Source of the DNA: Phycomyces nitens
Lineage: Eukaryota; Mucoromycota; Mucoromycetes; Mucorales; Phycomycetaceae
DNA length: 64,000 nt
Reading direction: 5' to 3'
Assembly: GCA_022702545.1 (NCBI GenBank)
Contig: JAHRBC010000001.1
Location: 9,610,001-9,674,000 of the forward strand
Position numbers and translations under genes: made by a program. This document shows positions 1 to 31,570 of this stretch, in pieces. The notes beneath the pieces are model-generated. The model ran no database searches. It was not told the origin of the DNA and worked only from the letters and a program-made list of their open reading frames with translations. Each line of letters begins with the position of its first letter. The stretch's first letter is position 1.

Positions 1-3000
1 TGTGAGCCATTCATCTTCTTCTGGACCTTGTCCTTTCCATCGTACGAGGTATTCTCTTTTACCCGCATTGCCTCTGTGATTAATGATGGCTTGCACTTCA
101 ACAAGTTCATCTTCTAGTGCTGTTTCGTCAACTGAAATCAATTTTAGGTCAGATGGTGGGTAGTCCCTTGGCATCAATGCCCCGGTTTCGTCTTGGAGAA
201 CATAGGATCCTCCTTGGGTTTGACGTATAACTGTATATGGCCCTTGGTATGCTGGAGCTAGTTTGCTACTTCTGGTTGGTAGTCTTATCATCACATAACT
301 GCCATTATTTATCTTTGCTATTGTGTGACTTTTATCGAATTTGTCTTTTTGAGTTTTTGTGATGAGTTCTGTTCTTTCTTTTATGGCTGGGAAGACTATC
401 TCTGCCATATGGTCGATTCTTTTTAATAATTCGTCGTTTGACATTGGGATTGTTGGAATTGATCCTGGTTCATTATAATCTTTGAACGCATTGATATTTC
501 TTGCGAACATAAGTGAGAACGGTGCTGTGTTCAGTCTTTTTGATATTTTGTTATTTATTGCGAGTTGGGATGCTGGTAGGTAATGATCCCAATCCTTACC
601 AGTTCCTTCAACTACTTTCCTTATGACTTGGATTGAAGTTTGCACCCATCTTTCCGCTACGCCATTGGCTCTAGGGTGATATGGTGTTACTAATCGGTGA
701 TCTATTCCCGAGTTTTCCATGATCTTTGTCATTAATTCATTTTTGAATTCTGTGCCATTATCCGATTGTATTATTCTTGGATAACCAAAATCCCCAAATA
801 TTTGTACAAGGGTTTTTGCTATGGTATCTGACTGTTTGTTTGGTATGGCTCTCAGTATGCAGAATCTTGTGCATACATCTACCATGACAAAGAGATACAC
901 GTTTCCATTGTCTGTAGGTGTCAACGGTCCTGCTAAGTCTATTGCCCAGTGATCTCCTGGTATGTACGCATGTATTGGTCTAAGTGGATTGTATCCTTTT
1001 CTTGTTATATTGTATTTTTGACATGCTGCACATTCTTTTATGCATTCTAGTGCATCTTGGGTGATGTTTGTCCAATGCATCCCGTTCTTATGGGTGAGTT
1101 CAACTATATGTTCGGCTCCAAAGTGTCCGAAGAGATGTGCATCTTGAATGATCTTTTTGCGTTCCTCTTTGGGTGGAGTCATGTAGTCTAGTGTCATTTT
1201 TTGCACTGCTACTTTGAATATTTTCTCATTTGGACTCTTGGCTTGAAATGCGACATGATTGAACTTTGGGTCTTGTAAACGCTCTTTGGTTTCTTTTGAT
1301 GTCTTATTGGCCGCATTACCTCCCCCCAGCGTGTTTTCTACCGAGAAAAGTCGCGACAAAGAGTCAGGTAGTTTGTTTAAAACACCTGGTATATGCAGGA
1401 CATCAAAACTATAGTCGAGGATGGTATCTAACCATTGGATCATCATTGGGTTCGCTATTTTTTGCGTGTGTAGGTAAGTCAATGCTTTGTGATCAGTGTA
1501 GAGGGTAAAATGGTTTCCCCATAAAAACTTATGAAACTTCTTGAGTGCAAAGACCACTGCAAGTAACTCTCTTTTGGTTGTGGAATAGTTTCTTTCGGAT
1601 TTAGAGAGAGCTCTGGCCATAAAGCCAATGTAGTTCTTGCGCTCATCAATTATCTGATACAGCACGGCGCCTATTCCTAGATTAGATGCATCTGTGGCAA
1701 CAAGGAATGGTTGAGTTAAATCCGGATGTTGCAAAGCTGGATTGCTTTGCAGGATATTTTTAAGTTGTTCAAAGCAACGTTGATGTTGGTCATTCCATAT
1801 TTTCTCTATATTGTTCGCAGATCTGAGGGCATCCAAGGGAGCAGTGATATGTGCCACAATTGGTATGTAATCCCTGAAGTAGTTGATAACTCCTAGGAAG
1901 CTTTGTATGTCTCTACCAGTTTTTGGAGTAGGCCATGTCATGACGTTGGTAATCTTGCGTTTGTCTATTTTACTACCATTTTCGTCGACTGAGAATCCTA
2001 ACAGATATACCGATTTCTGTGCAAAATGGCACTTTTGCGGGTTCAATATGAGATTAACATTTGTTAGAGTTTGAATAGCCTGGCACACATGAGTGGTGTG
2101 TTCTTCTAGGGTTTTAGAGAATATGACTATATCATCAACAAATGTTTGTATGAATGGCATGTCTTTGAAGATTAACGACATTACACGTTGGAATTTAGAT
2201 GATAGTGGTTTTAGTCCGAAAGGGCATCCTTGAAACATATATTGGAGATTATTGTGAGTGAATGTCGTTTTGTGCTGGTCTTCTTCAGCAATCTTGAAAC
2301 GATGGAATGCGCTTTTCAGGTCTAATGTGGTGAATATTTTTGCACCAGTGATGGTATCAAAGATGTCTCTAATGAGAGGTAGCGGAAACTTATCGTCGGG
2401 TAGGAGTTTGTTGATGTGACGTGGATCTAAACAGGGTTGTTTTCCTGTTTTGTTTCCGTGTACGTCTTTCTTATCGGCCAAAGTCAGTGGGCTATTCCAA
2501 GTGGTATTTACTGGAGCCTTCACTATTGTGCCTTCCTTCAACCAACTGTTCACCGCTTCATCAATAACCGGCCTTAATGCATACGGCAGCGGATATTGTC
2601 TTTGATAGGTTTTAGAACCTTCAGTAGTTTTGAGCTCTACTATGGATTCAGGTACTGTACAGAAAGACGTTTTTGGTATAGCCTCATTTTCTCTTATGTG
2701 AGGAGCTATTGCTGCCATAAAACTGTCTTGTTGTTCTTGTGTTCCATAGGGCAAATTATTTGGTTCCATCTCATCATCTACTTCTTGACCTGTGCAGTTG
2801 GCATTGTGTACATTCCAGTCAATTGCTACGCCTGTTAACGCTATGCCAAGTTTGGGTATTATGTCATGTCCCAGAATTAGATCTTCACTTTCATTCATCT
2901 CCATGAGTTCGAACGAATGAAGGAAGTTATGTCCATTGGCATATGTTACATTAAGTGGGACTGTTTGCCCGATGCGTTTAGAAGTATGATTTTTTCCTGC

Positions 3001-3134
3001 AAACACTAAGTATCCTTCTACTTTGACGATTGGTTTCTTTATTGTGTCATTGTAGAATTTTATGTTGAGGCAAGACTTTTGCGCTCCAGTGTCAATGAGG
3101 CCGAGCACCTTATACTCATTCTGTAAAAGAATGG
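1..3134 (-). CDS. Pol polyprotein of element B (protease, RT, RNase H, integrase, chromodomain), 3'-truncated by window
   Basis: The frame opens in the overlap with gag, one base back (-1) from the gag frame, and stays open to base 1. In order it shows a retropepsin motif LIDTGA near 3082-3100, the RT motifs TLDLKSAFH (about 2310-2340), CPFGLKPLSS and FVDDIVIF, RNase H motifs ATDAS and TDHKAL, an integrase with a zinc-binding N-terminus, HWAIDLAGP, SDNGTEF and NGVAERW, and finally YLVRWKGQ...DEWL, a chromodomain, at 1-60. All key catalytic residues are present. There is no start codon at the head of this frame, so expression should depend on -1 frameshifting at 3135-3141. The last part of the chromodomain and the stop are outside the window. 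Confidence 0.9.
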
Positions 3135-4409
3135 GTTTTTTTCTATTTTTTGTTTGTTTATGCTCTTACCAAAGGACGCATTTTCCAAGGTATTGGCAAT
3201 GTGCTCCATTGGGTCCAAGCTTGTGGCCTTTAGCGACTTGATGGCAAATTCTTGGGCCTGCTTCTTGCGGTATTCGTCTGACGAGAAATACTCTTTGCAC
3301 TTGGGATTGTAACTCCAATCTTTTCCGCAGTGGCGGCAAATCTTGGCGTTAGTCTTGGTGCTCTTGGTCTTATTTATGACTTTGCATTCATTTGTGTCAT
3401 GCGAGTCATTAAGTTTGTGGTGAGCACAGAAGAATTTAGATTTTTTAACATTATTGTTAGTATGCCCGACACTTTTTTGTGAGCTATGGATTTTACGAGG
3501 TGTATTGTTTTCATTATTTGAGCGTTTGTAGGCTACAGACACTCCATTAGTGAGTAGCGCTACCTGCTCGATGGTTTGTGGCATCTCTGTATGCCTGGCA
3601 AACCATGCCAACTTGACCTTGGCTTGCAAGTCGGGGGTAAGGCTGCTCATAAATCTCATGGCGAGATTCGCATTTTCCTGTACGCCACCTTCTCGGCAAG
3701 CCTTTTGGAAGCGTATTCCATAGTCAAGGACAGACTCATGTTGGGACATTTGCATGGTAAATACCAGCGAGCCCATTTCCAATTGTCTATCGAACAAATC
3801 AAACTTCTTTCGGATCACTTGCTTTACCTGTACCCAGGTGAGGTCGCGATCCGCAAGGCTCTCTTCATACCAGGCGTCATAGTGATGGTCGAAAGCTAAA
3901 GGTAGCCATTTCTTCCATGCTTTATCTATGTTTACCTTCCCAGCGTTCAGTACTTTCTGTACGGCTGACAGGAAGTGGGACACTGCTTCGTACACGGGCT
4001 CGTTGGGGTAACGTACTGTCTGCCCTGCCAGCTGGAACTTCGGTATGTCCCTAAGTGAGATGGTTGAACCTTCGGTCTGGTTCTTTGGGGTCTTGAAGGT
4101 ATCCCTGCCTCGGTAGTGAGACAACCTTTCGAGCAGGGCCGAGGTCTGGTCTATCTCCGTTTGTGCTTGACTTAGGACACTTGCGTCGCTGCCATTCATG
4201 ACCAGTTCGTGGAATTGGCCCACCAGCTTGCAGAGTTTGGCCTCCATGTGCTTGACAAGCTGGTCCAGTTGTCTTGCAGCCAGTTCCTTGGCGGCTTCCG
4301 GTTCTTCTTGCGCCATATGGCTGGAATCATCCATGGCCATGTCCTCGGACAGGATGGTCATGTTATTGGTGTCTTGGATGAAAGATTCGAAAGAGTTGTT
4401 ATCGGTCAT
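3060..4409 (-). CDS. Gag protein of element B
   Basis: A 449-residue ORF starting at the first ATG after the 5' LTR and primer-binding region. The N-terminal third is acidic and Gln/Glu-rich (possible coiled coil). The middle has the capsid-like pattern of Retrotrans_gag proteins (KKFDLFDRQLEMGSLVF, ESVLDYGIRFQKACREGG). A Cys/His cluster near residues 325-375 (CAHHKLNDSHDTNEC, then CRHCGKDWSYNPKC) resembles the paired zinc motifs of family A gag. The last 25 or so residues overlap the start of pol in another frame and are what is made when no frameshift occurs. Family membership rests on position and motif pattern. Confidence 0.85.
   Translation of the reverse strand: MTDNNSFESFIQDTNNMTILSEDMAMDDSSHMAQEEPEAAKELAARQLDQLVKHMEAKLCKLVGQFHELVMNGSDASVLSQAQTEIDQTSALLERLSHYRGRDTFKTPKNQTEGSTISLRDIPKFQLAGQTVRYPNEPVYEAVSHFLSAVQKVLNAGKVNIDKAWKKWLPLAFDHHYDAWYEESLADRDLTWVQVKQVIRKKFDLFDRQLEMGSLVFTMQMSQHESVLDYGIRFQKACREGGVQENANLAMRFMSSLTPDLQAKVKLAWFARHTEMPQTIEQVALLTNGVSVAYKRSNNENNTPRKIHSSQKSVGHTNNNVKKSKFFCAHHKLNDSHDTNECKVINKTKSTKTNAKICRHCGKDWSYNPKCKEYFSSDEYRKKQAQEFAIKSLKATSLDPMEHIANTLENASFGKSINKQKIEKNPFFYRMSIRCSASLTLERKSLAST
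3135..3141 (-). other. -1 ribosomal frameshift heptamer A AAA AAC (gag/pol, element B)
   Basis: In the gag frame the minus strand reads gaA AAA AAC, a canonical X XXY YYZ slippery site. A -1 slip here moves gag ribosomes into the pol frame a few codons before the protease. Gag continues 75 nt past the site to its own stop at 3060-3062. I did not model a downstream pseudoknot. Confidence 0.8.
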
Positions 4410-4450: not shown

Positions 4451-4463
4451 TCACTTTAAAAAA
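4451..4463 (-). other. Putative self-priming primer-binding site, element B
   Basis: Immediately after the LTR end (minus strand) come five T residues and then TAAAGTGA (4458-4451). It does not begin with TGG, so a tRNA 3' end is not an obvious primer. The reverse complement TCACTTTA occurs inside the same LTR (minus strand, 4540-4533), downstream of its TATA box, as expected if the element's own 5' RNA end primes minus-strand synthesis as in Tf1. Confidence 0.6.
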
Positions 4464-4731
4464 TGATGTATTTAGGGTAGGAATATAGTAAAATGTGATA
4501 ATAAAGGTAATGAAATAAAGAGACGTAGTAAGTAAAGTGAGACTTTGTATAGTATGGTTTTTAATGAGGTAGAAAAGTTGGTATCAATTAAGATGATGTT
4601 GCTAGTCTGTGTTCCTGTTCCTTTTATACTGATATTGTAATTCATAGTCCGTGTTAGATTCACCAGTTATATTTAATACTGGGATTGATTATATATGTCT
4701 TTGTCATACATATAGATGTGCAAATACAACA
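4464..4731 (-). repeat. 5' LTR of element B
   Basis: 268 bp, beginning TGTTGTATTTGC and ending ACATCA on the minus strand. The boundaries are confirmed by the solo copy at 13687-13955, which starts and ends at the same bases and has a 5-bp target duplication. It carries a TATAAAA box and an ACAAAGTCTCACTTTAC block that aligns with ACAAAGTCTCACCGTAC in the family A LTR, probably near the transcript start. Confidence 0.9.
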
Positions 4732-5703: not shown

Positions 5704-8700
5704 ATGCAAAACACTGCTGTTATTACGTGCCTAGATATATGTTCTTCTCAGACAGGTGTTCTCAAACAGTACATGTTTTTTTCTTAATTTGTAATAGTAT
5801 GTATGTTTGCTTTTGGAATAGAGTTTATACACAATCTTTATAACTAAGCTCACACTGAATTTTCAAATCTGACATGTTAATATATAATATCTGGTCAGTT
5901 ATTTTTTAACATACTGACTGGGCATTTATTAAAATTTATCTATCAGATATTAAATTAATACATAAAATTACAATTATAAACTTTTAATATTGTAATGATT
6001 TAGATTATTTTTTGCAGTGTACAACGTAGTACCTATTCAGACCTTCAAACGTCATATGATAAATGAAGAAACACAAAGCATTTTAAATGCACAAAAACGT
6101 AAGAGATTATAATTATATTTATTTATATTTCAGATAATAATAAATTTATTATAGAGGCCAGGCAATCTGTTGAAAACACTGTATCTATGGATACAGCTCA
6201 ATATGAAGAATTGATTCATATCTGTAGTCCTGACAATGATATGGATTATGATCTCAATGGTAAAGACTTTATTTTTTATTGTTAACACTGCAAAAAATAT
6301 GTGATTTCAACTCTGAATACATCAATTGAAACGAGGGGAGCATAGGTCTTGGATTAGCCCTTTTCTTGATTGCTCACTTTAGACGGCGTTAAGAATATTT
6401 GGTAGTTCTATTGGATGGACATTAGAATATGTCTTTATTTTTGTTGATTATTAACCTATGATGTTTTCTCTGTCCTTTGAAAGTTATAAAGTTAATATTC
6501 TTGGGTGGTGATTAAAATGAATTATCAGATATAGGTAATTTTATAAGACCTTGACTTAAAAATGATTAGAGTCTTTCTTGATTAAATAAAGCGTCTAACT
6601 GTAAAATGAAAATGATAATTATATTATGTTTTTGGGATTATTGGTTTTACAGACTCCACTTTTTTTAGGGGTAAACCACCTTGGAATGCAAATTATTTTT
6701 TGTTCTTTCTCTTTTGCCTCTTGCTCTTATACACATACTGGTAATTATTTTATTCTTATTATTTTATGTAATTACTTAATGATTTTGCCATTATCTTTAC
6801 AGATCATCAACAAGCTTCTCCTCTTTGGTCATTTTACATAGTTTAATAATATAAAATAATATTTGCTCAAATCTTCTCTTTACTAATGACAATATCTCTA
6901 GCCATCACGGCTTTGCATGTCACTTAATCTTGTTGTTGTATCCAACATAATCGTAGATTGAAACATTAACACAAATTACCAATATTGAAACATATTGAAT
7001 AACCGACCTACTGGAAGTACACTAAAGAGTGTATCTTTCCAAATACATTATTCATACGTAAAGACACACTAACAACCAGTACTAACACACTGGTTAATAG
7101 TACTAAGTAAAATAACAAGTCATATCTAATAGTTGGTAGAGAGAACAGACATTACATGATATCATCATATCATCACTAGCACTCATCTCAATGTCTACAT
7201 AAACGCACAATACGAATAGCAATAGTCTTCATCTTATTCAAAAATTCTTTCTCTCTCAATAAACAAAGTCTCACCGTACTCTTGTCCATGCTTTGTTTTC
7301 CTCTGATTTAACACTTGTAACCAAACATCATGGTAAGCTATTATATTATTATAAATCATATATATCTCTTTACTTATACATATATAACTATGTTCTATTC
7401 TCTATTAGATATATTAAGAATCTCATCTGCACGCCTGAACAAACAATCACACAGGTAAGAAAACTGCTGATAATATAGTATATATGAATATCCAGAATAC
7501 TAATAACTTTACAATTCTTAGACAATCTTAACTGACAGCTAATATGCTGAAATATTCTCATGAATCTATCAAGTAGTCCATCTACTCACGATATCAATAT
7601 TGTAAGTACAACAGCAAATAATTTGATCCATTATGATTATTTAATTAATCTTTGCTCCTATTACTATTAAATAGCACCATTCTCCTCCAAGACAGTATTC
7701 AATATCTATTAGGTAGGAACTTGTTAGTCTTGCTAGATGCAAAATATCAAACAATACTCTAGAAATAGCATATATATTATTATTATATGATTAGAGCATT
7801 CATCTAGAAATATATATATTAAATAAATAAAAAATAAATAAAAAACAATTTGTTTTTTAAAAATCAACAAACAAATGAGGCTTGTATGTAAACATATGAT
7901 ATGGTGCTTTTCAGTCTAAAAGACCTTATTTTCCTTTGCTTTTCAGTCTAAAAGACATTATTTCCCTTTGCTTTTCAGTCTAAAGACATTATTTCCCTTT
8001 GTTTTTCAGTCTAAAGACACTATTTCCCTTTGCTTTTCAGCCTAAAGAGATGAGTTACTGAGGTTAAAAGTAAAGGATATGAATAGATTGTAAATCGCGA
8101 TATTGCGATTAGCTTTATATGGCACAAAATACAATATATAATAGGCTTACTTGACACGAAATATAAAATAAACTAGACCTCTTTAATAACAGAAAAGTTG
8201 GGGGGTATCAAAGGTTTTTCAAGCAGAACTAAAGACCTATTTCTCTGATAGACCAGGCATCATTCTCTATAGTATCATTCATATTTGTATGGTGGAGAAA
8301 TATAGATTGAAATAACAATAAATTGATGATGGTACTTTAATACTACAGATATTTCTCCACCATAAAATCATATACTTTTTCCAGTGTAATTTGAGTTTAA
8401 TAATAATATTCCTTTTTAGTAGATTCGGTTGACAGCACCAATGCTGACACTCAATCTCAGAAAGAAACCTTACCTCTTTCTGAGAATGACACTTTGTTTC
8501 ATGATGAGGATGACAATTGCTCTGCTTCTGATGAATCAGATGGCAATGATTCAAGTGACGATGAGATTGTTGATGATGAAGGTATGTACAATACTAAACA
8601 TAATCCTAGTCCTGAAACGAAAATAATGGATTAATAATATTTTCATTTTAAATAGACTATTCTTCAGAATCTGTCTCAGAATTGAGTTTCATTCACCGAT

Positions 8701-11156
8701 TCATTGTTACCACAATTGCTATCTTCATATCATTATATGTTGTTAACGGAGGTGCCGTAGTCTTAATTGCAATTGTGAACAAGGTCTTGGAATTCTTTTG
8801 CGACCCATTCCGTCTTCCTGTGAGTGTTCAAGGCCTCAGACGATTGGCTGGTCTTGACGTTTTGTCAAATGGTGTAAAGAAGTATGTTGCTTGTGGTGAA
8901 TGCCATAGCATTTATGAGAATGATGACTCCACTCCTTCTTGCTGCTCGTTTGACAAGTTTGGAAAAAACTCCTTGTGTGGAACTCTGTTGTTCAAGTCCG
9001 GATCTAGATCTAGGATCCCAAAGAAAACGTACGTGTTTCACTCCATCAAGAAATCACTGGAGCTGTTCTTTGGCCTCCCTGAGTTTGAAGATGATATCAG
9101 TTTGTGGAATCGTGGTCCAAAGGCAAAGGACATGATGTTCGATATATACGATGGTGCAATGTGGAACGAAGTATTGGATATCAATGACATTCCCTTTGTT
9201 GACGGTGACCATTCATTAATGTTGACCCTCAACATTGACTGGTTCCAGCCATTTGATAGAGTCACATATTCTTGTGAAGCCATATACCTTGCCATTAACA
9301 ATCTTCCTCAAGATATCCGGTTCAAGAAGGAGAACATTATCCTTGTTGGATTAATGCCAGGGCCAAGAGAAGCGAAGACATCAGAGATCAACAATTACCT
9401 CAGACCTCTGGTAGATGAATCGGAAGAGTTATACCAGGGTATCAAGATCAAGACCCATCAATGCCCATCTGGTGCAACTGTCCGTGCCGCTCTCTTTCTG
9501 GTCGCTTGTGACATCCCTGCTGCAAGGAAAGTATGTGGATTTACATCCCATATGAGTACAAATGCCTGCCACAAATGCAATTGTCGGTTCAATCGGTTAG
9601 CTGGAACAAACTCTGTTGATTATTCTGGATTTGATTCTTCAAAGTGGCTCCTTTGCACTAGAGATGATAATCGTAAGGATGCTGAGGTCTGGAGAAATGC
9701 ACCCACTCAAGCTGAGAGGCAGCGCCTTGAAGTTGCCAGTGGTGTTCACTGGTCCAAACTGCATCGTCTCCAGTACTTTGACGTTGTCCGCTGCACAATC
9801 ATCAATCCAATGCACAATCTTTTCTTAGGCACTGCCAAGAGAATGATGGAGAGATGGCTTGCAGATGGAGTAATCAACAATAAGAGTCTCATTGCCATGC
9901 AGAAGATGGTGGAGAAGATGGTGTTGCCGGCCGATTATACCCAGATAAAGACGAAGATTGGAAAAGGGTTCCCCTTTATGAAGGCAGACGAGTGGAAATC
10001 GTGGTGCCTGGTTTACTCTCCAGTGGCGTTAAAGGGCATAATTCCAGACCTTCACTTCTCAAACTGGATGCATTTCGTCAATGCATGCTGTTTACTTACC
10101 AAGCCCAGTGTTTCTGACAATGAGATCAAGCAAGGCCATGCATCTCTTGAGTTGTTCTGTAAAGGATGCGAGGAGATTTACGATCATAGTCTTCTGTCCC
10201 CAAACATGCACCTCCACCTCCACCTTTGCCAGACAATCAATGACTTTGGGCCGTTCTATGGTTACTGGCTCTTTAGCTTCGAAAGGTACAACAGTATCTT
10301 AAAAAATATAGACACGAACAGGCGAAGTGGGTTTGAATCAACCTACATGAGACAATTCCTGGAAGAGACTTACAAGAACAATCATGTCCGTACAATTTTG
10401 AAGCACCAGCCAAGTTTTCCCTGCGCTGACATTTTGTACAAGTTGACAAATGCAGACCACAAAAACCATTCAACAATAGCTGCCAAAAACACCCAAAGCC
10501 CATTCTCGCTCCCAGACTTTCTTGAATCCGCTGAAAATCCGCATGTACCTGTACAAGGCAATGAGCCCCTTCCATTGCCTATAACAATCCAGCAAAAGCG
10601 ATCAAAAGCAATGATACCAAAAGAAGAATACAATTGCTTGGTCAAATACTACCAGGTTGCGTATAACGACAATGAGATCCATAGCTGCAAAGACACGATG
10701 CAAGGCATGGCTTTTGTGAATGACTGGTTCGAAAAGCTGAAGTTGGTTAATCTCCTAGGCCAGACATTCAAGGGCATCAATGGCAAAGAGAATCGCGGAT
10801 CGTATATTCAAGCAATTTTTATTGAAAACAAGACTGGGGTAGAGTACGCATATGTTGGAGAGATTCAATACCTATTTGTTCATACATTTAGCCCTGTTGT
10901 TTCTTCTCTGCAACGTGAAAATGTCCACAATAGTCAGCATACCTTTGCTTTTGTAAAGTGGTTCAAAACTACATCAGACAGGAGTAGAGAGTTTGAGGGA
11001 ATTGAGATTGTTGAAGATGCCTTCTACCCTCTTGATTTCGAGTGTATCCTCCCAGTACATCGTATCCTAATGTCTGTTGCAATCATGGAGTACAAAACAA
11101 CCGGAGATATTAGAAAAAGACTTGTAGTCCCTCTTCCCAGAAAGATCTCTTATTAA
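5704..11156 (+). CDS. CACTA transposase, Tnp2 (Transposase_21) family, five exons
   Basis: Spliced model: 5704-5755, 6018-6098, 6134-6259, 8420-8581, 8656-11156 (2922 nt, 973 residues). Every junction is GT-AG and the phases join without a stop. Exon 1 and 2 encode a short Cys-containing N-terminus leading to PIQTFKRHM, typical of the start of Tnp2 proteins. Exon 4 is strongly acidic (DESDGNDSSDDEIVDD). The large last exon has a CxxC...CC segment (CGECHSIYENDD), then the conserved transposase core (LTLNIDWFQPFDR, HQCPSGATVRAAL, ARKVCGFTSH, CHKCNC) and the motif MHNLFLGTAKRMMERW, followed by HLHLHLCQ and FGPFYGYWLFSFERYN. The third intron contains element X and a solo LTR, enlarging it to 2160 bp without touching an exon. 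The exon 1 start is the least certain part. The gene appears intact, and it may mobilise related non-autonomous copies (inference). Confidence 0.85.
6934..7313 (+). repeat. Solo LTR, family A, inside element X1
   Basis: 380 bp from TGTTGTATCC to TTTAACA, the same termini as the LTRs of the full element at 15263-20819. It is flanked by CTTGT at 6929-6933 and 7314-7318. The uninterrupted site is visible in copy X2 near 36518, confirming both the boundaries and a solo LTR formed by LTR-LTR recombination. Confidence 0.95.
7907..8046 (+). repeat. Tandem subterminal repeats of element X1
   Basis: Four to five copies of a roughly 33-bp unit built around CTTTTCAGTCTAAAAGAC followed by ATTATTTCCCTTTG. 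The core is itself a short inverted repeat (CTTTT/AAAAG). Subterminal tandem motifs are where accessory CACTA proteins such as TNPA bind in plants. That role here is inferred from position only. Confidence 0.7.
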
Positions 11157-13686: not shown

Positions 13687-13955
13687 TGTTGTATTTGCAC
13701 ATCTATATGTATGACAAAGACATATATAATCAATCCCAGTATTCAATATAACTGGTGAATCTAACACGGACTATGAATTACAACATCAGTATAAAAGGAA
13801 CAGGAACACAGACTAGCAACATCATCTTAATTGATACCAACTTTTTCTACCTCATTAAAAACCACACTATACAAAGTCTCACTTTACTCACAACATCTCT
13901 CTATTTCATTACCTTTATTATCACATTTTACTATATTCCTACCCTAAATACATCA
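13687..13955 (+). repeat. Solo LTR, family B
   Basis: 269 bp with the same start (TGTTGTATTTGC) and end (ACATCA) as the 5' LTR of element B, in opposite genomic orientation, differing at roughly ten positions by eye. Perfect target duplication CTTTC at 13682-13686 and 13956-13960. This copy fixes the LTR end, and so the position of the primer-binding site, in element B. Confidence 0.95.
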
Positions 13956-15186: not shown

Positions 15187-15262
15187 TGTTACCGGCAAGA
15201 CTTCCCTACACATGATATGCTATCTGATATCAAGGGAGAGTCTAGCAAGGATCTTTTGGAAG

Positions 15263-15642
15263 TGTTGTATCCAACATAATCATAGATTGAAACATTAACA
15301 CAAATTACCAATATTGAAACATATTGAATAACCGACCTACTGGAAGTGCACTAAAGAGTGTACCTTTCCAAATACATTATTCATACGTAAAGACACACTA
15401 ACAACTAGTACTAACACACTGGTTAATAGTACTAAGTAAAATAACAAGTCATATCTAATAGTTGGTAGAGAGAACAGACATTACATGATATCATCATATC
15501 ATCACTAGCACTCATCTCAATGTCTATATAAACGCACAATACGAATAGCAATAGTCTTCATCTTATTTACAAATTCTTTCTCTCTTAATAAACAAAGTCT
15601 CACCGTACTCTTGTCCGTGCTTTGTTTTCCTCTGATTTAACA
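15263..15642 (+). repeat. 5' LTR of element A
   Basis: TGTTGTATCC...TTTAACA, 380 bp. It includes a TATATAAA box near 15523-15532 and, about 75 bp downstream, the block ACAAAGTCTCACCGTAC. The octamer TCACCGTA within it (15600-15607) is complementary to the sequence just behind the LTR. Confidence 0.95.
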
Positions 15643-15655
15643 TTTTTTACGGTGA
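15643..15655 (+). other. Putative self-priming primer-binding site, element A
   Basis: Five T residues then TACGGTGA (15648-15655), directly after the LTR. It is the exact complement of TCACCGTA in the LTR. In family B the same two positions read TAAAGTGA and TCACTTTA, so two base pairs covary. No TGG start is present for a tRNA primer. Confidence 0.65.
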
Positions 15656-15692: not shown

Positions 15693-18600
15693 ATGTCTGT
15701 CCAGCAAGCAAACAACTCTCCTATTTTGGCCGCCTTGAGTGACCTCAGCATGTCTGAAGCCGCTGCTCCCAGCCAGCCCGTCAAGTCCTTGGCCGCCATC
15801 TCGCATCTCCGTGAGAGACTCTCTGCCTGTACTGTTGCCCTGGCTGATGCCATTGAGCAAGATCAGCCTGATGAGGCCAAAGCTCACCTCCGCCAGAGCA
15901 TTACGTCAATGGAGGGCGATCTAACCCTTTTGCTCTCCGCTCACGCCCACCTGGTCCGTCCTGAACCTGTCTTTGCCGCACAGACAGCCCACCAATCTCG
16001 CGTTGTCCCTCATGAGCTTCCTGTCTTCCAGTGGCAGGGAAACGAGTGGGATAGCACCCAGAAGACTTATTCCTCTATTGAGGAATGCCTCAACAAGTTT
16101 GAGGATGTTTTGCTGTCCTACAGCCTCAACCTCAACGAGGACTGGCACCATCTTCTCCCCATGGTTCTCTCAAGAGAACAACGTTCCTGGTTCGACGACT
16201 ACCTCCATAGTTCTCCCAATCTCCCCTGGTCCTTTGCTCGTGGTGCCTTTGTGAAGGCATATGGTATCAACGACGTGGAGCGTCGCGTCCAGCTCACCCA
16301 GGAGCTCATGATGATGAAGATGTCCCCCAAGGAATCCGTCAATCAGTATACCGACAGATTCCAGCGGGTGCGCAGGGAAGCCCAGATCAATGATGATCTC
16401 CTCATGTCTGTGGCATACACTGGTTCCCTGCTCCCCGAGCTCTCCAGACAGGTGTCCCTACTACAAGTCAACATGCCTCTGGAGAAAAGAGACACGATCG
16501 ACCAAGCTGCTTCCCTTGCCAGGTCCATCTACAGCAAGGTAATCACCAGCCGCCCTTCTGGTTCTCTTGCTTCGTCCGTGACCTCTTCTTCGGCCACATC
16601 TGTCTCTGCCTCTGCTTCTCCTGCTCGTTCCCCCTCTGGTCCCACTTCTGCTTCTGTTGGCCGTTCCGCCGGTTCCTCTCGTGTGTCTTCACACAGTCAT
16701 GACCGCTTTGCCGTCAAGCGCTGTACCTTGCATGGCAAGGGAAACCATGACTCAGAAGATTGCCGAGTTCTCAAGAACGTCCTGGCCACCAAGGGTGGTA
16801 ATCGTGTGGAGAAGCACGCCACCAACACCAACAAGTACGTTGGGTCCTCTCCGTGTCGCTGGTGTGGTGAAGTCTGGTCACCAAGACACCGCTGCTCTTC
16901 TGTCTCCGGCTCTTCCAGTTCTACGTTGGGCTCTGCTCGGGGCTCTGCTCCCCACTTCGCCGTCCGTTCTGCCCACGCCGTCGTGGAAGACCCTCTCGTT
17001 CCCTTGGATGCCAGCTCATCCGAGGATGACCAGTCCATGGAAATGGACTTGGAACAGTGCTCTCCTTGTAAGTACACGAGCACTAACATAGATATCTCTC
17101 AACGGTCTACTCACTCTTATCTTGTTCCCATCTCCTTAGAAGGCGAGCAACTGTGGGCATTGGTGGACACCGAGGCTACTATCAGTTCGGTGAACACCAA
17201 AATCTGTAGCAAATTTGGTTGGGCCATACTTCCCCGCAAGGGAAAGATCGTGTTGGCAACCAAGGACGTTACAACCCATAGACTAGGAGTTACAAATAAA
17301 ATAAATGTTTCATATAATGATAAAAAGATAGCACACTCGTTTGAAGTTATGGATCTCGCTGAGAATATAGATGTTAGTATTGGTACAGACTTGATGCCTA
17401 GCCTTGGCATTCATTTGTTAGGACTGGCAACTAGTTGGTATGGATCTAACGCGCCTCAGGCCCCTACTCCCATAATTGAAAAAGAAGAACCCAATAATTC
17501 ACCAGCTGGAACACCTGCTGAACATAATACTTTCATGAAGGCTCTTTTACCCTTTATTAAATCAAACGAAACTATCCCCATTTCCTCATTCTGTACAGTT
17601 AAAGAGTCTATCGTACGTCAACCTACTCCTCCAGGTCAGGTAGTCTATCGGCGTCAATATCCCATCGCTCTGCAACTTGTACCACTGATGGCCAAACACA
17701 TCAAACAATGGCTAACTGACGGCACAATCCAGTGTGCACCCGTCAACACTAAGTGGAATAGCCCACTTACCTTCGCACCCAAGAAAGATGAGTTTGGCAA
17801 CCCAACAGGAAAGAGACCTTGCCTGGATCCCAGAGCAATCAACACTCTGCTGCCAGATGACAGGTTCCCTCTGCCACTCATTTCCGAGCTCTTCCACAAG
17901 CTACGAGGTGCCACCATATTCACCACTCTCAACCTCAAGAGTGCATTCCATCGCTTTAAGATTCATGAGGATGATCGACACAAGACCACATTCACATTCG
18001 AAGGCAATCAGTATATGTTTCGTGGATGTCCATTCAGCCTCAAGCCTTTATCATCCAAGTTTCAACGTGTTGTGAATCTCATTTACCATGACACTCCATA
18101 TGTTACTGCCTTTGTGGATGATATCGTAGTCTTTTCCACTAACATGACCGACCATGTTAAACACGTCCAAACCGCCGTTCAAAAGCTTACAGACGTCAAC
18201 CTCATTCTTAATCCACAGAAATGTCACTTCGCGCAAACTTCTGTATCTTTACTGGGTTTCACTGTGAGTACAAGAGGTGTTGATCTCGACGCTCGCAAAG
18301 TTCATAATGCCAACATCTGGCCTCAACCCAAGTCTGGCAAAGACATTCAAAGATTCCTCGGTCTCGTCAATTACTTTCGCGAGCATATTCCAAACTTGTC
18401 GCAACTGTCATCTCCACTCGATAAACTGCGCAATGCTGACTCATTACAAGGGTTATGGACTGAGGAACAAACACAAGCTTTTTCCAAGCTCAAACACGCA
18501 CTTACCCACGCACCAGTTATAAGCCACCCGGACACCAATCAGCCTTTCCTGGTTGCCACGGACGCCTCTAACACTGGAATAGGCGCAGTGCTCTATCAGA

Positions 18601-20360
18601 TCATCAACAACCAATATCGTTACATTGGCTTCATGGCTCGCTCTCTCTCCAAGTCTGAACGTAACTATCCTGTTACCAAACGTGAACTCCTGGGTATTGT
18701 CTACGCCCTGACCAAATTCCACAAGTTTCTGTGGGGTAACAAATTCACGTTGTACACGGACCACAAGGCACTCACCTACCTTCACACACAAGAGATCGCC
18801 AATCCTATGATGATTAACTGGCTTGACGTGCTCTGCGACTATAACTACGACATAGTTCACAGACCTGGCATTGCAAATATTTTACCAGATGCTCTATCAC
18901 GCCTTTTCACCTCGGAAAAACCGCTGGGGGAGGATAAAACCATAGAACCCTCTATGAAGCATCCGGCAAAAGCAGTACAGAAACCATCACATGCCCTTCA
19001 ACGAATGCACAACACAAGCGAAATGATTACACCACCAATCAAAGACAGACAGCATATCCTCAATCAAGCACATCTACTCGGCCACTTTGGTACAGATGCT
19101 ATAGTCAATGCTATACACAGTGATGGACTCCACTGGACTAACCTCAAGCAAGACGCCACAGAAACGGTAAAGAACTGCTTGAACTGTCAACGATTCAATG
19201 TCACAAAACACAGTTATCATCCGCTGAAACCTATTACTGCCAGTCAACCAGGTGAACACTGGGCCATTGATCTTGCTGGTCCATACACCACCTCACACAA
19301 TGGCAACCATTATATCCTAGTAATGGTTGACATCTTCTCCCGATTCTGTATACTCCGTGCAATTCCCGACAAGACATCCTTAACAATTGCAAGACAACTT
19401 GTTCAGATCTTCTGTGACTATGGATTACCTAAGATCCTACAGTCAGACAACAGTACCGAGTTTGTCAATGAACTCGTCAAGACATTCACCCAGGCAGCAG
19501 GAATCGATCATCGCCTAGTGACCCCATATCATCCGAGAGCAAATGGTGTGGCTGAGAAATGGGTACACACAGCAAAGGAAGTCATAAACAAGAGAACACA
19601 AGGAGCAAAGCAAGACTGGGATTTATACATCCCAAGTACGCAACTGGCCATAAACAGCAAACATGCTAAACTACATGGCACACGTCCCTTCACTCTCATG
19701 TTTGCCAGACAACCGACCGATTTCTCTGACTACCGAAAAACGGAAAGTACACACACTTCTCCAAACTGTCTAAAAGAAAGAAAGGACCGTATCGAACAAA
19801 TGGAGACTGTCGTATTCCCTGCTATCCGAGAACGTATCAAGGCCACACAAGCAGCAGACAAGGGAAGACACGATAAGGGCCATAATATCATAATGGAGTT
19901 TCCCAATGACAGCAACGTGATGATCAAGAATATCCTCAAAAAATCCAAGACCGATCCAAGATATGAGGGACCATTCACAGTCAAGGGCAGAACAAAAGGA
20001 GGCAGCTACATCTTGCAAGACAAAACGGGCGCACTTTTATCAAGAAACATTCCGCCCTCGCAAATTAAGCTGATATCCCAAGATACCGTTATCTCTTCTG
20101 ACAATTTCTACGAGATACAAGCCATCATTGACCATCGTAAAGACAAAGGCGACTATCTTTACAGAGTACGTTGGAAAAACTATGCACCAGATCAAGACAC
20201 TTGGGAACCAACCAGTCACTTCAACGATTTGAGCATTATTGACAAATACTGGCAAAGACGAGGTGCTGAACAACCTCAGAAACAATCTACGATCAAACAT
20301 AACAAGCGCACCAGGTCATCCCAAGAACCTACACGATCCAGTAAACGCAGACGCAACTGA
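15693..20360 (+). CDS. Gag-Pol polyprotein of element A, single ORF, with active-site substitutions
   Basis: 1555 residues with gag and pol fused in frame. Gag occupies about 1-430, with a Ser-rich linker and a CRWCGEVWSPRHRC zinc-like motif near 388. The protease region is at about 485-580, RT about 680-860, RNase H about 930-1060, integrase about 1110-1400, and a chromodomain (YRVRWKNYAPDQDTWEP) near 1488-1510. FVDD in RT and the integrase D,D,E residues are present. Odd residues: protease DTE instead of DTG (Glu494), RT LNL instead of LDL (Asn747, the first catalytic Asp), PFSL instead of PFGL (Ser782), and integrase DNST instead of DNGT (Ser1254). Families B and E, and mostly C, keep the usual residues. 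The start is the first ATG after the primer-binding region. Expected product: a Tf1-like single polyprotein, probably non-functional for reverse transcription. Confidence 0.93.
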   Translation: MSVQQANNSPILAALSDLSMSEAAAPSQPVKSLAAISHLRERLSACTVALADAIEQDQPDEAKAHLRQSITSMEGDLTLLLSAHAHLVRPEPVFAAQTAHQSRVVPHELPVFQWQGNEWDSTQKTYSSIEECLNKFEDVLLSYSLNLNEDWHHLLPMVLSREQRSWFDDYLHSSPNLPWSFARGAFVKAYGINDVERRVQLTQELMMMKMSPKESVNQYTDRFQRVRREAQINDDLLMSVAYTGSLLPELSRQVSLLQVNMPLEKRDTIDQAASLARSIYSKVITSRPSGSLASSVTSSSATSVSASASPARSPSGPTSASVGRSAGSSRVSSHSHDRFAVKRCTLHGKGNHDSEDCRVLKNVLATKGGNRVEKHATNTNKYVGSSPCRWCGEVWSPRHRCSSVSGSSSSTLGSARGSAPHFAVRSAHAVVEDPLVPLDASSSEDDQSMEMDLEQCSPCKYTSTNIDISQRSTHSYLVPISLEGEQLWALVDTEATISSVNTKICSKFGWAILPRKGKIVLATKDVTTHRLGVTNKINVSYNDKKIAHSFEVMDLAENIDVSIGTDLMPSLGIHLLGLATSWYGSNAPQAPTPIIEKEEPNNSPAGTPAEHNTFMKALLPFIKSNETIPISSFCTVKESIVRQPTPPGQVVYRRQYPIALQLVPLMAKHIKQWLTDGTIQCAPVNTKWNSPLTFAPKKDEFGNPTGKRPCLDPRAINTLLPDDRFPLPLISELFHKLRGATIFTTLNLKSAFHRFKIHEDDRHKTTFTFEGNQYMFRGCPFSLKPLSSKFQRVVNLIYHDTPYVTAFVDDIVVFSTNMTDHVKHVQTAVQKLTDVNLILNPQKCHFAQTSVSLLGFTVSTRGVDLDARKVHNANIWPQPKSGKDIQRFLGLVNYFREHIPNLSQLSSPLDKLRNADSLQGLWTEEQTQAFSKLKHALTHAPVISHPDTNQPFLVATDASNTGIGAVLYQIINNQYRYIGFMARSLSKSERNYPVTKRELLGIVYALTKFHKFLWGNKFTLYTDHKALTYLHTQEIANPMMINWLDVLCDYNYDIVHRPGIANILPDALSRLFTSEKPLGEDKTIEPSMKHPAKAVQKPSHALQRMHNTSEMITPPIKDRQHILNQAHLLGHFGTDAIVNAIHSDGLHWTNLKQDATETVKNCLNCQRFNVTKHSYHPLKPITASQPGEHWAIDLAGPYTTSHNGNHYILVMVDIFSRFCILRAIPDKTSLTIARQLVQIFCDYGLPKILQSDNSTEFVNELVKTFTQAAGIDHRLVTPYHPRANGVAEKWVHTAKEVINKRTQGAKQDWDLYIPSTQLAINSKHAKLHGTRPFTLMFARQPTDFSDYRKTESTHTSPNCLKERKDRIEQMETVVFPAIRERIKATQAADKGRHDKGHNIIMEFPNDSNVMIKNILKKSKTDPRYEGPFTVKGRTKGGSYILQDKTGALLSRNIPPSQIKLISQDTVISSDNFYEIQAIIDHRKDKGDYLYRVRWKNYAPDQDTWEPTSHFNDLSIIDKYWQRRGAEQPQKQSTIKHNKRTRSSQEPTRSSKRRRN

Positions 20361-20426: not shown

Positions 20427-20439
20427 TGGAGGGGGGTAA
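20427..20439 (+). other. Polypurine tract of element A
   Basis: GGAGGGGGGTAA immediately before the 3' LTR, in the position and composition of the plus-strand primer. Confidence 0.85.
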
Positions 20440-20819
20440 TGTTGTATCCAACATAATCATAGATTGAAACATTAACACAAATTACCAATATTGAAACATA
20501 TTGAATAACCGACCTACTGGAAGTGCACTAAAGAGTGTACCTTTCCAAATACATTATTCATACGTAAAGACACACTAACAACTAGTACTAACACACTGGT
20601 TAATAGTACTAAGTAAAATAACAAGTCATATCTAATAGTTGGTAGAGAGAACAGACATTACATGATATCATCATATCATCACTAGCACTCATCTCAATGT
20701 CTATATAAACGCACAATACGAATAGCAATAGTCTTCATCTTATTCACAAATTCTTTCTCTCTTAATAAACAAAGTCTCACCGTACTCTTGTCCGTGCTTT
20801 GTTTTCCTCTGATTTAACA
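20440..20819 (+). repeat. 3' LTR of element A
   Basis: Same length and termini as the 5' LTR, with a single base difference seen. Followed by the GGAAG target duplication and the remainder of the element C LTR. Confidence 0.95.
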
Positions 20820-22028
20820 GGAAGACAACTTCTGGCAGATAATAAAGTAGATGTGAATCTTTAGTAGGAAGAGAACTCTTTATTGAGTATTGCTGTCTGA
20901 ACTTATTTATAATGGCAATCTTTCACTAAGTCACGTGTTGCTGGTGACACTACTCCCCTTCTCAAGACTGTTGACCTCCGGTTCTTGGTCGAGTAGTATC
21001 CCAAAGGGAACGAAGTGAGGCCTCGCCAAGTTTGATGGGCTTTAGCAAATTTGAATAAATGTAGCTACTCAGTATTCTCCCGGTTGGTGTCTTTAATTGA
21101 TAGGTGTCTATCGCGGTAGTTCATACAACTTGAAAAGGTCCTTTCCAAGCAAATTCGAACTTCTTTCTGTTTTCCTTCTTCATGATGACCCAATCATCTA
21201 CTGCAAATGTTTGCCTCTTTCCCACCTTCTTTTCATGACTTGCTTTCATTCTTTCCATTGCTTTCTGCTGATTCTCCTGTGTTATATCCCTTGTTGTGTT
21301 CAATGGTATGATTCTGTCATATACAGTTGAACTAGCTTTGCGAGTCTCAGAAAGGTTTGGTTGCGTGGGATCTCCAGGTATCACTGGTTCATGACCATAT
21401 ACCAGGAGGAACGGGCTGTATCCTGTTACATCATGAATCCTGACTCTGGTTGCAAACAATGCTTGTTCCAAGTATTTGTCCCATTGTTCCCTTCGATTTC
21501 CAGCTAACTTGATTATCATTCCACTGAGAGTTTGATTGAACCGTTCTGTTTTTCCATTTGTTTGTGGGTGATATGGTGAGGTTTGAAGATGGTAGATGTT
21601 TTGGATGTCTAAATACTGGTGTAATATTCTGGCCATGAAGTTACATCCTTGATCAGATAGTATTTCTTTGGGGCATCCAAATAGCATCATGATTTCATAG
21701 TATATGAAATTAGCCACTGCGTCTTCTGTTGCTTTGGGTATAGCCTTGGCCACTGCCCAGTTAGTTGCGTAATCTATGGCAACAAGTATCCATTTATTAC
21801 CCCGTGGGCTGAGTGGGCACGGTCTAATAAAATTAATACCCCAATGCTCAAAAGGCTGTACAGGTGTAAGAGGGTGAAGTGCAGCTGTTTCTTGGTAATC
21901 TAGTGGATGATTTGCCATTTGACATTCAGGACAAGTGGAAATCCAGGTGCATACTTCGTCCCTCATTTTTGGCCACCATGCTCTTGAATTTAGAAGACTT
22001 AGAATACCATCTACGCCCAAGTGGCCAT

Positions 22029-23774
22029 CACTACAAAAATTGAGTGGTTTCATTCATAGCAAACTACTATATTATCTTACCATTAGTAGACTGAAGTTAA
22101 ACATAATAAACTTTTTTATTTTTGACGGTGATTATATTATTCAATATGTTCTATTGGATAGAATAATAAAGTAGAGCCTTTTAGATGTCATATTTGCTTG
22201 TGATTTATTTCTACTTCTTGTAACTATATCATTAAATTAATTGGAGTAGAAATAATAAACAAATCAATTATTATCATGTTTATTCTCATAAGAAGGAAGA
22301 GAAATATGACCAGTATGCTTGCAAGTAAATAAGTTGACTGAAGATAATAAATTGTCTTATAGTTTTATTATTATTTAACAGCATTGTGTACACTCTTGTT
22401 CTATATCAAGACATCTTTTTCAACCTAATAAACTATAAATTACAAAGATATGAAAATGATGGCAGGCATATTCTTTTGGATTATCATTTTTATTGCCCGC
22501 ATTTTATCAGGGTCAAACAGCCTTTTAATACAAAGTATTTGTTTTTCCTTTTTATTTTTTATATTCTTTTGTGCCTAAATATTACCGCAAAATACTCTGG
22601 TAATTAATTCTTTTCTTTCTCTTGTGAATATATTTTTTACTCAATATATTTTATTATTCATAGGTAACTGCTTATAAATATATTATGGGGCTCTCTATTG
22701 CACTTGGCTGTATATCCAAAGGTAAGATCATATTATGCTAAAGCTATTCTTTATTAACCAAATCACTCTTTTATATATAGCCGCAAATTCTATTTTTCTA
22801 TCCATCTCAATATAATATTCTGATAAACCTTTTATATTATAAATATGTCCTCTTTAATAACATCTATCACAGACATCTTGCTATGCTCTTATATGGATTC
22901 CCGATTGAAATTATCTGGCCATTCCAATGGCTATATCTTGTAAGTAAACTAATATTTTAGTATTACATATTGTTTATCTACAAATATTAATATATATCTA
23001 TTAGACAATAATCATTTGTTAGTATATTACAGAGAGTCTATCAAATGTTCTGTTTATTATATTAAAAATGTAAGTATAAGAATGAATGATTTATATAAAA
23101 ATAATTTACTAACAATCTTCTCTTTTACTTTTAGACAGTATTGGCTTTCTCTCAGCTAGGTAAGTATCCTGGCTCTATTAAGAACCAGTTGATGGTGCCA
23201 ACCAAGAAATATTGATTGGTAGAATAGATATACCAAAGAAATAATCTAGAGACTAGAATATATAGCGCAAATGTATTTTTTATCAAATAAAACGAAAAAT
23301 AAAAATTTTCAGAATCTATTGCTCCAAAAAAACAACAAACCAGAGAGGCTTGTTTGCATAGAATAACTACAATTACCTTGCAATAGTCTACAATCATCCT
23401 TGATAGACTGTTAAAACATATTATAAAACCCACTATAAAATATAATGAAAGATAAAACTGGTTGTTTGTAAGTAGTTAATCTCCCCTGACACAAACTGTC
23501 TGTGTATCGTAAAATGCAATGCAAAAAAGGGTAGATTGACTAGGAATATATTGTGGCTACAATGTATATTTAAGTTTTGCACTGTTTGAGGGCATTTAAA
23601 TATTCTACATTGGATTCTTGTACACCAGTAGGTAGGATGATTCAGTTCACCCCCATATCTTTTTAGTCTACTACAGATCACAATTATATATTACCAAAAG
23701 CATAGTAAAACTATATAATTAAGTAGCTTATTTTATAAGTTTTATCTACATAATACCCTTAGACTTTTGTAGTG
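22029..23774 (+). mobile_element. MITE-like CACTA element Y1 (non-autonomous)
   Basis: 1746 bp, left end CACTACAAAAATTGAGTGG, right end (reverse complement) CACTACAAAAGTCTAAGGG, so the terminal inverted repeat is about 10 bp. CAT duplicates at 22026-22028 and 23775-23777. Inserted between RNase H and integrase of element C. No transposase domain. Small ORFs inside it are not gene-like. Copies: Y2 (28808-30553, full length), Y3 (31820-32334, deleted) and Y4 (14232-14900, truncated). Confidence 0.93.
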
Positions 23775-30985: not shown

Positions 30986-31570
30986 TGTTACTGGCAAGAC
31001 TTCCCTACACGTGATATGCTATCTGATATCAAGGGAGAGTCTAGCAAGGATCTTTTGGAAGACAACTTCTGGCAGACAATAAAGTAGATGTGAATCTTTA
31101 GTAGGAAGAGAACTCTTTATTGAGTATCACTGTCTGAACTTATTTATAATGGTGTTATATCCAACATAATCGTAGATTGAAACATTAACACAAATTACCA
31201 ATATTAAAACATATTGAATAACTGACCTACTGGAAGTGCACTAAAGAGTGTACCTTTCCAAATACATTATTCATACGTAAAGACACACTAACAACTAGTA
31301 CTAACACACTGGTTAATAGTACTAAGTAAAATAACAAGTCATATCTAATAGTTGGTAGAGAGAACAGACATTACATGATATCATCATATCATCACTAGCA
31401 CTCATCTCAATGTCTATATAAACGCACAATACGAATAGCAATAGTCTTCATCTTATTCACAAATTCTTTCTCTCTCAATAAACAAAGTCTCACCATACTC
31501 TTGTCCATGCTTTGTTTTCCTCTGATTTAACAAATGGCGATCTTTCACTAAGTCACATGTCGCTGGCAAC
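30986..31570 (-). repeat. 5' LTR of element C, interrupted by a solo LTR A
   Basis: About 198 bp after removing the solo LTR and one AATGG. Ends GGCAACA at 31570, followed by AAAG, which also precedes the left LTR. Confidence 0.88.
31151..31532 (+). repeat. Solo LTR, family A, inside the right LTR of element C
   Basis: 382 bp, TGTTATATCC...TTTAACA, flanked by AATGG at 31146-31150 and 31533-31537. The left LTR of C shows the unoccupied target (TTTATAATGGCAATC). Confidence 0.95.

What the first reader, a model, noticed from the sequence alone, without database searches (positions are those of the whole stretch)
15600..15655. Covarying LTR/primer-site octamers point to self-primed reverse transcription in families A and B
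Seen: in A the LTR octamer TCACCGTA (15600-15607) is the exact complement of TACGGTGA (15648-15655), behind the LTR. In B the homologous pair is TCACTTTA and TAAAGTGA (minus strand, 4540-4533 and 4458-4451). Two positions differ between families and both changes are compensated. Both sites sit five T residues after an LTR end fixed by target duplications, and both LTR octamers follow the shared block ACAAAGTC downstream of a TATA box. Neither element has a TGG-type tRNA site. Known: Tf1/sushi elements prime from their own cleaved 5' RNA end, pairing about 11 nt. Inference: A and B self-prime. The five-T spacer is a caveat, since primer sites usually touch the LTR.
Basis: partly seen in the sequence, partly recalled or inferred. 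Interest (0 to 1): 0.9.

Follow-up and report, generated by a model that had tools for sequence, protein, structure and literature searches.

The report
Retrotransposons primed by their own tail
Seven families of jumping genes in one probably fungal genome, and two relatives from other sequence collections, carry just behind their first long repeat a run of T's plus a 7-8 base stretch that exactly mirrors a site inside the repeat; they are therefore predicted to start copying themselves with their own RNA, likely its poly(A) end, instead of borrowing a transfer RNA.

Summary
In this 49-Mb genome (probably a Mucorales fungus) the layout LTR-CA / T-run / 7-8 nt PBS exactly complementary to an LTR site recurs in seven sampled Ty3/gypsy families (A, B, C, D, E, F, H) and two contigs from elsewhere (L121, L122): exact in 51 of 56 copies. 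The site differs between families with both sides changed together (four of eight octamer pairs; 0 of 500 shuffles reach the covariation score). Self-priming is well supported.

The side duplexes of the Tf1 'pretzel' were not detected (no positive control). The five T's look like a clue: T5 plus the octamer complement equals the complement of octamer + AAAAA, and a poly(A) hexamer lies 19-33 nt before the site's end in 12 of 12 representatives (0.82 expected from shuffles), so the RNA should end there, just before its tail. I commit to priming by the polyadenylated 3' end (0.48) over the cleaved 5' end as in Tf1 (0.40). No RNA ends could be mapped here; 5' and 3' RACE would decide.

The parts
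15258..15262 (+). target-site duplication GGAAG, left copy, element A
15263..15642 (+). 5' LTR of element A (ends ...TTTAACA)
15525..15532 (+). TATA box (TATATAAA), 75 nt before the octamer
15587..15592 (+). poly(A) hexamer AATAAA, starts 21 nt before the octamer's end
15600..15607 (+). LTR octamer TCACCGTA (predicted primer sequence; predicted last templated bases of the RNA)
15608..15642 (+). U5 (LTR after the octamer), 35 nt, no fold better than shuffles
15643..15647 (+). T5 between LTR end and octamer complement; first TT mirrors the U3 end (CA|TT); all five could pair with A's of the poly(A) tail
   Evidence: pairing with a tail is inference
15648..15655 (+). PBS octamer TACGGTGA
15693..20360 (+). 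gag-pol ORF: gag, RT, RNase H, integrase, chromodomain
20428..20439 (+). polypurine tract GGAGGGGGG plus TAA
20440..20819 (+). 3' LTR of element A
20820..20824 (+). target-site duplication GGAAG, right copy
4464..4731 (-). 5' LTR of element B
4560..4565 (-). poly(A) hexamer ATTAAA of B, starts 33 nt before the octamer's end
4533..4540 (-). LTR octamer TCACTTTA of B
4459..4463 (-). T5 of B
4451..4458 (-). PBS octamer TAAAGTGA of B
1..3165 (-). pol frame of B, cut by the window edge: RT, RNase H, integrase, start of a chromodomain
6934..7313 (+). solo LTR of A (TSD CTTGT)
31153..31532 (+). solo LTR of A (TSD AATGG), variant octamer TCACCATA
13687..13955 (+). solo LTR of B (TSD CTTTC), octamer TCACTTTA

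Best explanation
These Ty3/gypsy elements likely prime minus-strand DNA synthesis with their own RNA, and the primer is predicted to be its polyadenylated 3' end rather than a tRNA or the 5' end. Shown: LTR end, a T-run, then a 7-8 nt PBS exactly complementary to an LTR site; covariation of that pair across families; a poly(A) hexamer 19-33 nt before the site's end. Inferred: the RNA ends ...octamer-An; the octamer plus the first A's pair with the PBS plus T5 (up to 13 bp, reaching or nearly reaching the LTR end, as PBSs normally do); the unpaired rest of the tail is cut off, perhaps by the RNase H domain, which in Tf1 cuts the self-primer; the new 3' end is extended through U5 and R. R would run from the start site below the TATA box to the octamer, so the strong-stop DNA could anneal back to R of the same RNA. 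Because plus-strand DNA would copy the primer, the PBS of each new copy would be rewritten from the LTR site, which would keep the two matched.
For: Same layout in 12 representatives of nine families; exact pair in 51 of 56 copies, 49 of 54 in this genome plus L121 and L122. On six distinct octamer pairs, four of eight positions changed on both sides; covariation score 0 of 500 shuffles, double-changed pairs 2 of 500, best slid control 0.143 against 0.500. The stretch between LTR end and PBS is T only in 10 of 12 representatives and C+T5 in the two F rows (rows were anchored on a T-run, but C, D, E and F were chosen by RT match before their leaders were seen). The LTR does not continue with a run of A's there (next six LTR bases), so A's opposite the T-run could only be non-templated. 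A[AT]TAAA starts 19-33 nt before the site's end in 12 of 12, expected 0.82 of 12 from dinucleotide shuffles, 0.56 from the pooled rate; it is the only such hexamer in the stretch examined in 8 of 12. The site ends in A in 12 of 12. TATA spacing is variable, 43-88 nt, in the 9 of 12 where a TATA box was found. Both cDNA ends share the two bases outside CA (TT/TT in A, C1, D, E, V1; CT/CT in F; B reads the same), which suits a primer end 2-3 nt outside the LTR. T-run length varies between copies (L100 one shorter; E six to eight T's).
Against: No RNA end was mapped; hexamers and TATA boxes are consensus matches, and some LTRs have several TATA-like sites. A tail longer than five A's must be trimmed, and nothing here shows that. 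Tf1, the studied relative in kind, uses its 5' end (PMC7175516, PMC10085805, passages). No octamer-plus-A6 retrocopy of the A, D or H type exists in the genome (0; reversed-pattern control 2; other families not covered). In a short-R Tf1-like element the hexamer would also lie upstream of the octamer. The first two T's can be explained by integrase symmetry alone, and in V2 only the first base is shared. That the base after the site is never A follows in part from how the site's end is defined. In V2 (L122) the 7-nt pair is not the longest complement and its shuffle value is weak (0.039); F likewise (0.042).
Confidence: 0.48

Rival explanations
1. Tf1-type self-priming: the RNA starts at the octamer, folds back on the PBS, is cut after base 7-8 and that 5' fragment is the primer; the five T's are a templated spacer that integrase removes.
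For: Chromodomain gypsy elements (A, B, L121); the known mode of the Tf1/sushi group (passages); all covariation evidence fits it equally. Assuming the RNA starts at the octamer, the octamer duplex is in the minimum-energy fold of 8 of 10 representatives.
Against: 7-8 nt instead of 11; no side duplexes above shuffles (no positive control); TATA-to-octamer 43-88 nt where found; start would have to be at or before a C|T step because position 2 is compensated in L121; leaves the T-run and the placed poly(A) hexamer unexplained; where the hexamer is 33 nt away (B, D, V1) cleavage at the usual distance would leave almost no R beyond the octamer for strand transfer. Octamer duplex absent from the free fold of C2 and E.
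Confidence: 0.4
2. A tRNA or half-tRNA primes and the LTR complementarity is a by-product.
For: Most LTR elements use tRNAs (recalled); the G families of this genome have a TGG site 2 nt behind the LTR.
Against: No TGG in the PBS of the T-run representatives; 0 of 16 tRNA loci contain the complement of any PBS on either strand (16 of the 63 matches, themselves part of the set); it would not make the LTR site covary.
Confidence: 0.03
3. The pair is an RNA hairpin with another role (packaging, translation, poly(A) control), not a primer.
For: It folds readily in 8 of 10; U5 is poor in G (29 of 482 bases), which leaves the stem free.
Against: One partner is pinned 4-6 nt behind the LTR end, where a primer site must be, while the distance between partners varies from 34 to 74 nt; no other PBS candidate was seen.
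Confidence: 0.06

Closest known systems
Tf1/Tf2, Tj1 and the Tf1/sushi group of chromoviruses
   Same: Ty3/gypsy with chromodomain; PBS complementary to an LTR site instead of a tRNA (PMC7175516, PMC4600332, PMC10085805: passages read)
   Different: 7-8 nt pair instead of 11; T-run next to the LTR; pretzel side duplexes not detected; primer here placed at the RNA's 3' end (inference)
Plant Tcn1 and TAR lineages with predicted self-priming (PMC6317226, passages)
   Same: self-primer predicted from LTR complementarity 0-5 nt behind the LTR
   Different: that survey required at least 10 bp, so 7-8 bp pairs like these would have been missed
Dictyostelid Skipper (PMC5006619, section 12 read) and Selaginella SM-Tcn1 (PMC2864245, passages)
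   Same: chromoviruses without TGG (most Skipper) or without any PBS found (SM-Tcn1), with a polypyrimidine or T-rich leader behind the LTR; Skipper has a characteristic C, as family F has (C+T5)
   Different: no complementary LTR site was found by their authors; their sequences and figures were not available here
G families of the same genome (window 59635-63965, L079, L080)
   Same: Ty3/gypsy elements in the same host
   Different: TGG site after 2 nt (ATTGGTAGC...), no T-run, longest LTR complement 5-6 nt; RT on another branch than A-F and H

Membership tests
Tf1/sushi self-priming chromoviruses | gypsy gag-pol with integrase and C-terminal chromodomain | tested here: met
   A; B (domain cut by the window edge); L121. 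C, D, E, F, H and L122: chromodomain not tested.
Tf1/sushi self-priming chromoviruses | no tRNA PBS; PBS complementary to an LTR site | tested here: met
   51 of 56 copies exact
Tf1/sushi self-priming chromoviruses | complementary site is the first bases (11 in Tf1) of the RNA | not testable with these tools
   no transcript data; sequence cues argue against
Tf1/sushi self-priming chromoviruses | two further duplexes beside the PBS (pretzel) | tested here: inconclusive
   Negative: U5 x 25 nt after the PBS no better than shuffles in 12 of 12 (fractions 0.14-1.0); U5 plus spacer folds at 0.04 (C2), 0.05 (F2), 0.07 (V2), others 0.2-1.0. But mononucleotide shuffles, and no Tf1 sequence was at hand as positive control.
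Tf1/sushi self-priming chromoviruses | RT branches with Tf1/sushi | not tested
   no Tf1 or sushi reference sequence was at hand; one search holds only elements found here and nine homologues
tRNA-primed LTR retrotransposons | TGG plus tRNA 3' complement behind the LTR | tested here: not met

The most novel reading that the evidence does not exclude
A class of LTR retrotransposons that primes reverse transcription with its own poly(A)-tailed 3' end: the PBS is T5 plus the complement of the last 7-8 templated bases, so the primer closes the RNA into a circle and hands the strong-stop DNA straight to the neighbouring R. Published 'PBS-less' chromoviruses with T-rich leaders (Skipper, SM-Tcn1) may belong here.
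Probability: 0.45. Interest if true: 0.88.

Novelty: new variant of a known kind. Interest (0 to 1): 0.66.

Why it matters
Self-priming LTR elements are known, but the described form uses the RNA's 5' end, 11 nt in Tf1, in a three-duplex fold. Here is a natural series of nine families with short, diversified primer sites whose changes are compensated. The T-run offers a simple reading (pairing with the poly(A) tail) that was mentioned and set aside for Skipper (PMC5006619). If right, it gives a second way for an LTR element to be free of tRNA, joins poly(A) addition, priming and first strand transfer in one step, and may explain elements listed as having no PBS. It can be tested from ordinary RNA-seq.

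Tried and rejected
Considered and dropped: an extended octamer pairing through ACAAAGTC with one-base bulges (13-15 bp in A and B by eye); the same reading fails in C3 and H, so I do not claim it (my reading, no statistic). Covariation inside family A (L040 LTR TCACCATA with PBS TATGGTGA; L041 G.U; L039 mismatch) rests on CpG transitions and is weak alone; 18 LTRs carry TCACCATA and 2 of 11 PBS sites TATGGTGA. E copies L102 and L109 have a mismatch (TCACAAA against TTCGTGA); L046 lacks the LTR octamer. Octamer+A6 retrocopies, pattern covering A, D and H only: 0. A tRNA for the G families' TGG site: 0 hits for one pattern, so that control is TGG-type only. Viral-contig scans gave only L121, scan 62 nothing; genome scan 51 gave L122. 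The 3' LTRs of L040 and L041 were not found in the stretches fetched.
Rows dropped before counting: L088, L094, L110, L113 (no PBS in the fetched stretch) and L120 (my wrong coordinates). The covariation count used six octamer pairs, exact ones only; E, F and V2 (7-mers) and the mismatched copies were left out, so its 48 of 48 paired cells are by choice and only the covariation measures carry weight. LTR ends are fixed by target duplications in A, B, C1, D and F; in C2, C3, E and H by CA and the shared layout; L121 and L122 repeat part of their LTR at both contig ends. C1-C3 and F/F2 are subfamilies, so 12 representatives are 9 families. Not every RT group (150 scored of 462 candidates) was sampled; in the midpoint-rooted tree L122 falls on the side of G and the animal sequences (90/90, long branch flagged), so the T-run families are not shown to be one clade. 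TATA, poly(A) hexamer and cleavage-site rules are recalled.
Literature: searches. Nothing on poly(A)-end priming of LTR elements was seen in the listings of 87, 88 and 95; nothing on priming sites in Mucoromycota or Mucorales elements in 52 and 96 (0 papers each). Beyond section 12 of PMC5006619 only passages were read. Levin 1995, Lin and Levin 1997 (RNA) and 1998, Atwood-Moore 2006 and the Esnault and Levin review are not held; their titles were seen in reference lists only.

Full report
OBSERVATION. All coordinates of the finding hold. Element A is a 5.56-kb Ty3/gypsy element, LTR 15263-15642 and 20440-20819, TSD GGAAG, one ORF with gag, RT, RNase H, integrase and chromodomain. B is a relative on the minus strand, LTR 4731-4464, TSD AATAG, with RT, RNase H, integrase and the start of a chromodomain before the window ends. 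The A octamer TCACCGTA (15600-15607) and TACGGTGA (15648-15655), and the B pair, are exact complements; T5 separates each PBS octamer from the LTR end.

WIDENING. The window lies in an assembly of 48,981,352 bases in 11 contigs. The close homologues that bear a fungal name are from Rhizopus, Absidia, Lichtheimia, Circinella and Mucor, so the host is probably a Mucorales fungus (inference). A reverse transcriptase search scored 150 of 462 candidates. From groups seen there I took 5' ends of further families: C (three subfamilies), D, E, F (two) and H. In all 38 of these copies that held the site the LTR ends in CA (CG in L111), followed by a T-run (five unpaired T's as a rule; F: C then T5; E: four to six; L100: four) and a 7-8 nt stretch that in 36 of the 38 is exactly complementary to an LTR site (exceptions L102, L109). 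The site ends 28-69 nt before the LTR end in the 12 representatives. Pairs: A TCACCGTA/TACGGTGA; B TCACTTTA/TAAAGTGA; C TCACAGTA/TACTGTGA; D and H TCAAAGTA/TACTTTGA; E TCACGAA/TTCGTGA; F AAATTGA/TCAATTT. Two contigs from outside show it again: L121 (called V1; IMG/VR), TAACCGTA/TACGGTTA, and L122 (called V2; a contig in a bacterial MAG, probably eukaryotic), GAATTAA/TTAATTC. The two G loci fetched in the same call (L079, L080) do not.

STATISTICS. With the LTR end and T-run as anchor, the longest complement between the first leader bases and the last 150 LTR bases is the named pair in 50 of 56 copies; the pair is exact in 51 of 56. The five failures are L039, L041, L046, L102, L109. In L039 only the 5' LTR is changed, its 3' LTR keeps the matching octamer. 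In dinucleotide shuffles of the LTR end the complement appears in 0.00075 (A) to 0.042 (F) of cases per representative; allowing any PBS start from 0 to 10 the values are 0.016 to 0.28, weakest in F and V2. On six distinct octamer pairs four of eight positions have changes on both sides; the covariation score is reached in 0 of 500 shuffles, double-changed pairs in 2, pair types in 1; slid controls reach 0.143 at most against 0.500. The pairs given were exact ones, so the 100% pairing is by choice. Within the last 100 LTR bases no family holds the complement of another's different PBS. The G families (window 59635-63965; L079, L080) have TGG after 2 nt, no T-run and no complement beyond 5-6 nt. 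In the RT tree L121 is sister to E (100/99) though their primer sites differ, so the site diversifies while pairing is kept; L122 has a long branch and falls on the side of G and animal sequences (90/90), so one clade of T-run elements is not shown.

MECHANISM. Self-priming by the element's own RNA follows from the above with high probability (about 0.9, my estimate). Which end? (1) T5 plus the octamer complement is the complement of octamer plus A5. The LTR does not continue with a run of A's after the site (next six bases; that the very next base is not A follows from how the pair's end is defined), so such A's would be the poly(A) tail. (2) A[AT]TAAA starts 19-33 nt before the site's end in 12 of 12 representatives; dinucleotide shuffles give 0.82 of 12 (0.54 of 9 families), the pooled rate elsewhere 0.56; in 8 of 12 it is the only one in the stretch. 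This is the usual distance to a cleavage site (recalled). (3) The site ends in A in 12 of 12, as cleavage sites often do (recalled). (4) A TATA box was found in 9 of 12, 43-88 nt upstream of the octamer, so the start site is more likely upstream of it. (5) L121 is compensated at octamer position 2, so the RNA would have to begin at or before a C|T step if the octamer were its 5' end. (6) The T-run varies in length between copies, as a copied tail could. The tail beyond the duplex must be cut; in Tf1 RNase H cuts between bases 11 and 12 to free the self-primer (PMC7175516, passage), so the chemistry has a precedent. Against: no RNA data; Tf1 itself uses its 5' end; a short-R element of Tf1 type would also have its hexamer upstream; and the first two T's are shared by both cDNA ends (TT/TT in A, C1, D, E, V1; CT/CT in F; only the first base in V2) and may be needed by integrase for their own sake. 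That symmetry also suggests that the cDNA reaches at least 2 nt beyond the LTR, so the primer's 3' end would lie at A2-A4 rather than A5.

PRETZEL. For the 12 representatives, pairing of U5 with the 25 nt after the PBS is no better than shuffles (fractions 0.14 to 1.0), and U5 plus spacer folds better than most shuffles only in C2 (0.04), F2 (0.05) and V2 (0.07). U5 is poor in G (29 of 482 bases against 106 of 1114 in the stretch before the octamer). The Tf1 side duplexes described in PMC10085805 were thus not detected, but no Tf1 sequence was at hand to show that the test would find them.

KNOWN AND NEW. Tf1 (first 11 bases; PMC7175516), Tj1 (PMC4600332) and the Tf1/sushi group (PMC10085805) are the nearest in mode. 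The plant survey PMC6317226 asked for at least 10 bp and would miss these pairs. Skipper (PMC5006619) and SM-Tcn1 (PMC2864245) are chromoviruses with pyrimidine- or T-rich leaders and no complementary LTR site recognised; the Skipper authors set poly(A) priming aside because of a C in the stretch. Family F has a C next to the LTR end, where it matches the other cDNA end and needs no pairing with the tail. Linking those elements to this class is a proposal, untested here.

Noticed in passing
window 59635-63965 (minus), L079, L080: Ty3/gypsy families with a TGG site two bases behind the LTR (ATTGGTAGCTGAAGC); one pattern for a tRNA with that 3' end gave no hit in the genome, so their primer tRNA is unidentified.
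   Followed up: partly
window 22029-23774 and 28808-30553: 1746-nt inverted repeat, 99% complementary, 5 kb apart, with shorter copies near 14239 and 31820.
   Followed up: no
window 8652-11156: 834-aa ORF with a Transposase_21 (tnp2) domain, a CACTA-type DNA transposon gene (label recalled).
   Followed up: no
window 34684-35019: Array of 24-nt units inside overlapping open frames on both strands.
   Followed up: no
C5:5420792 (L040), C6:4157784 (L041), C9:185875 (L039): A-family variants with A-U, G.U and A.C at one octamer pair; a possible record of LTR-to-PBS copying, but all are CpG transitions.
   Followed up: partly
A, C1, D, E, F and L121 element ends: The two bases outside CA are the same at both cDNA ends (TT/TT; CT/CT in F), as if a retrovirus-like terminal dinucleotide is kept in step.
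   Followed up: partly
L122 (JAUXWL010000491.1): A gypsy retrotransposon contig binned in an Anaerolineales MAG, beginning and ending inside its LTR; likely eukaryotic contamination or a circular form.
   Followed up: no
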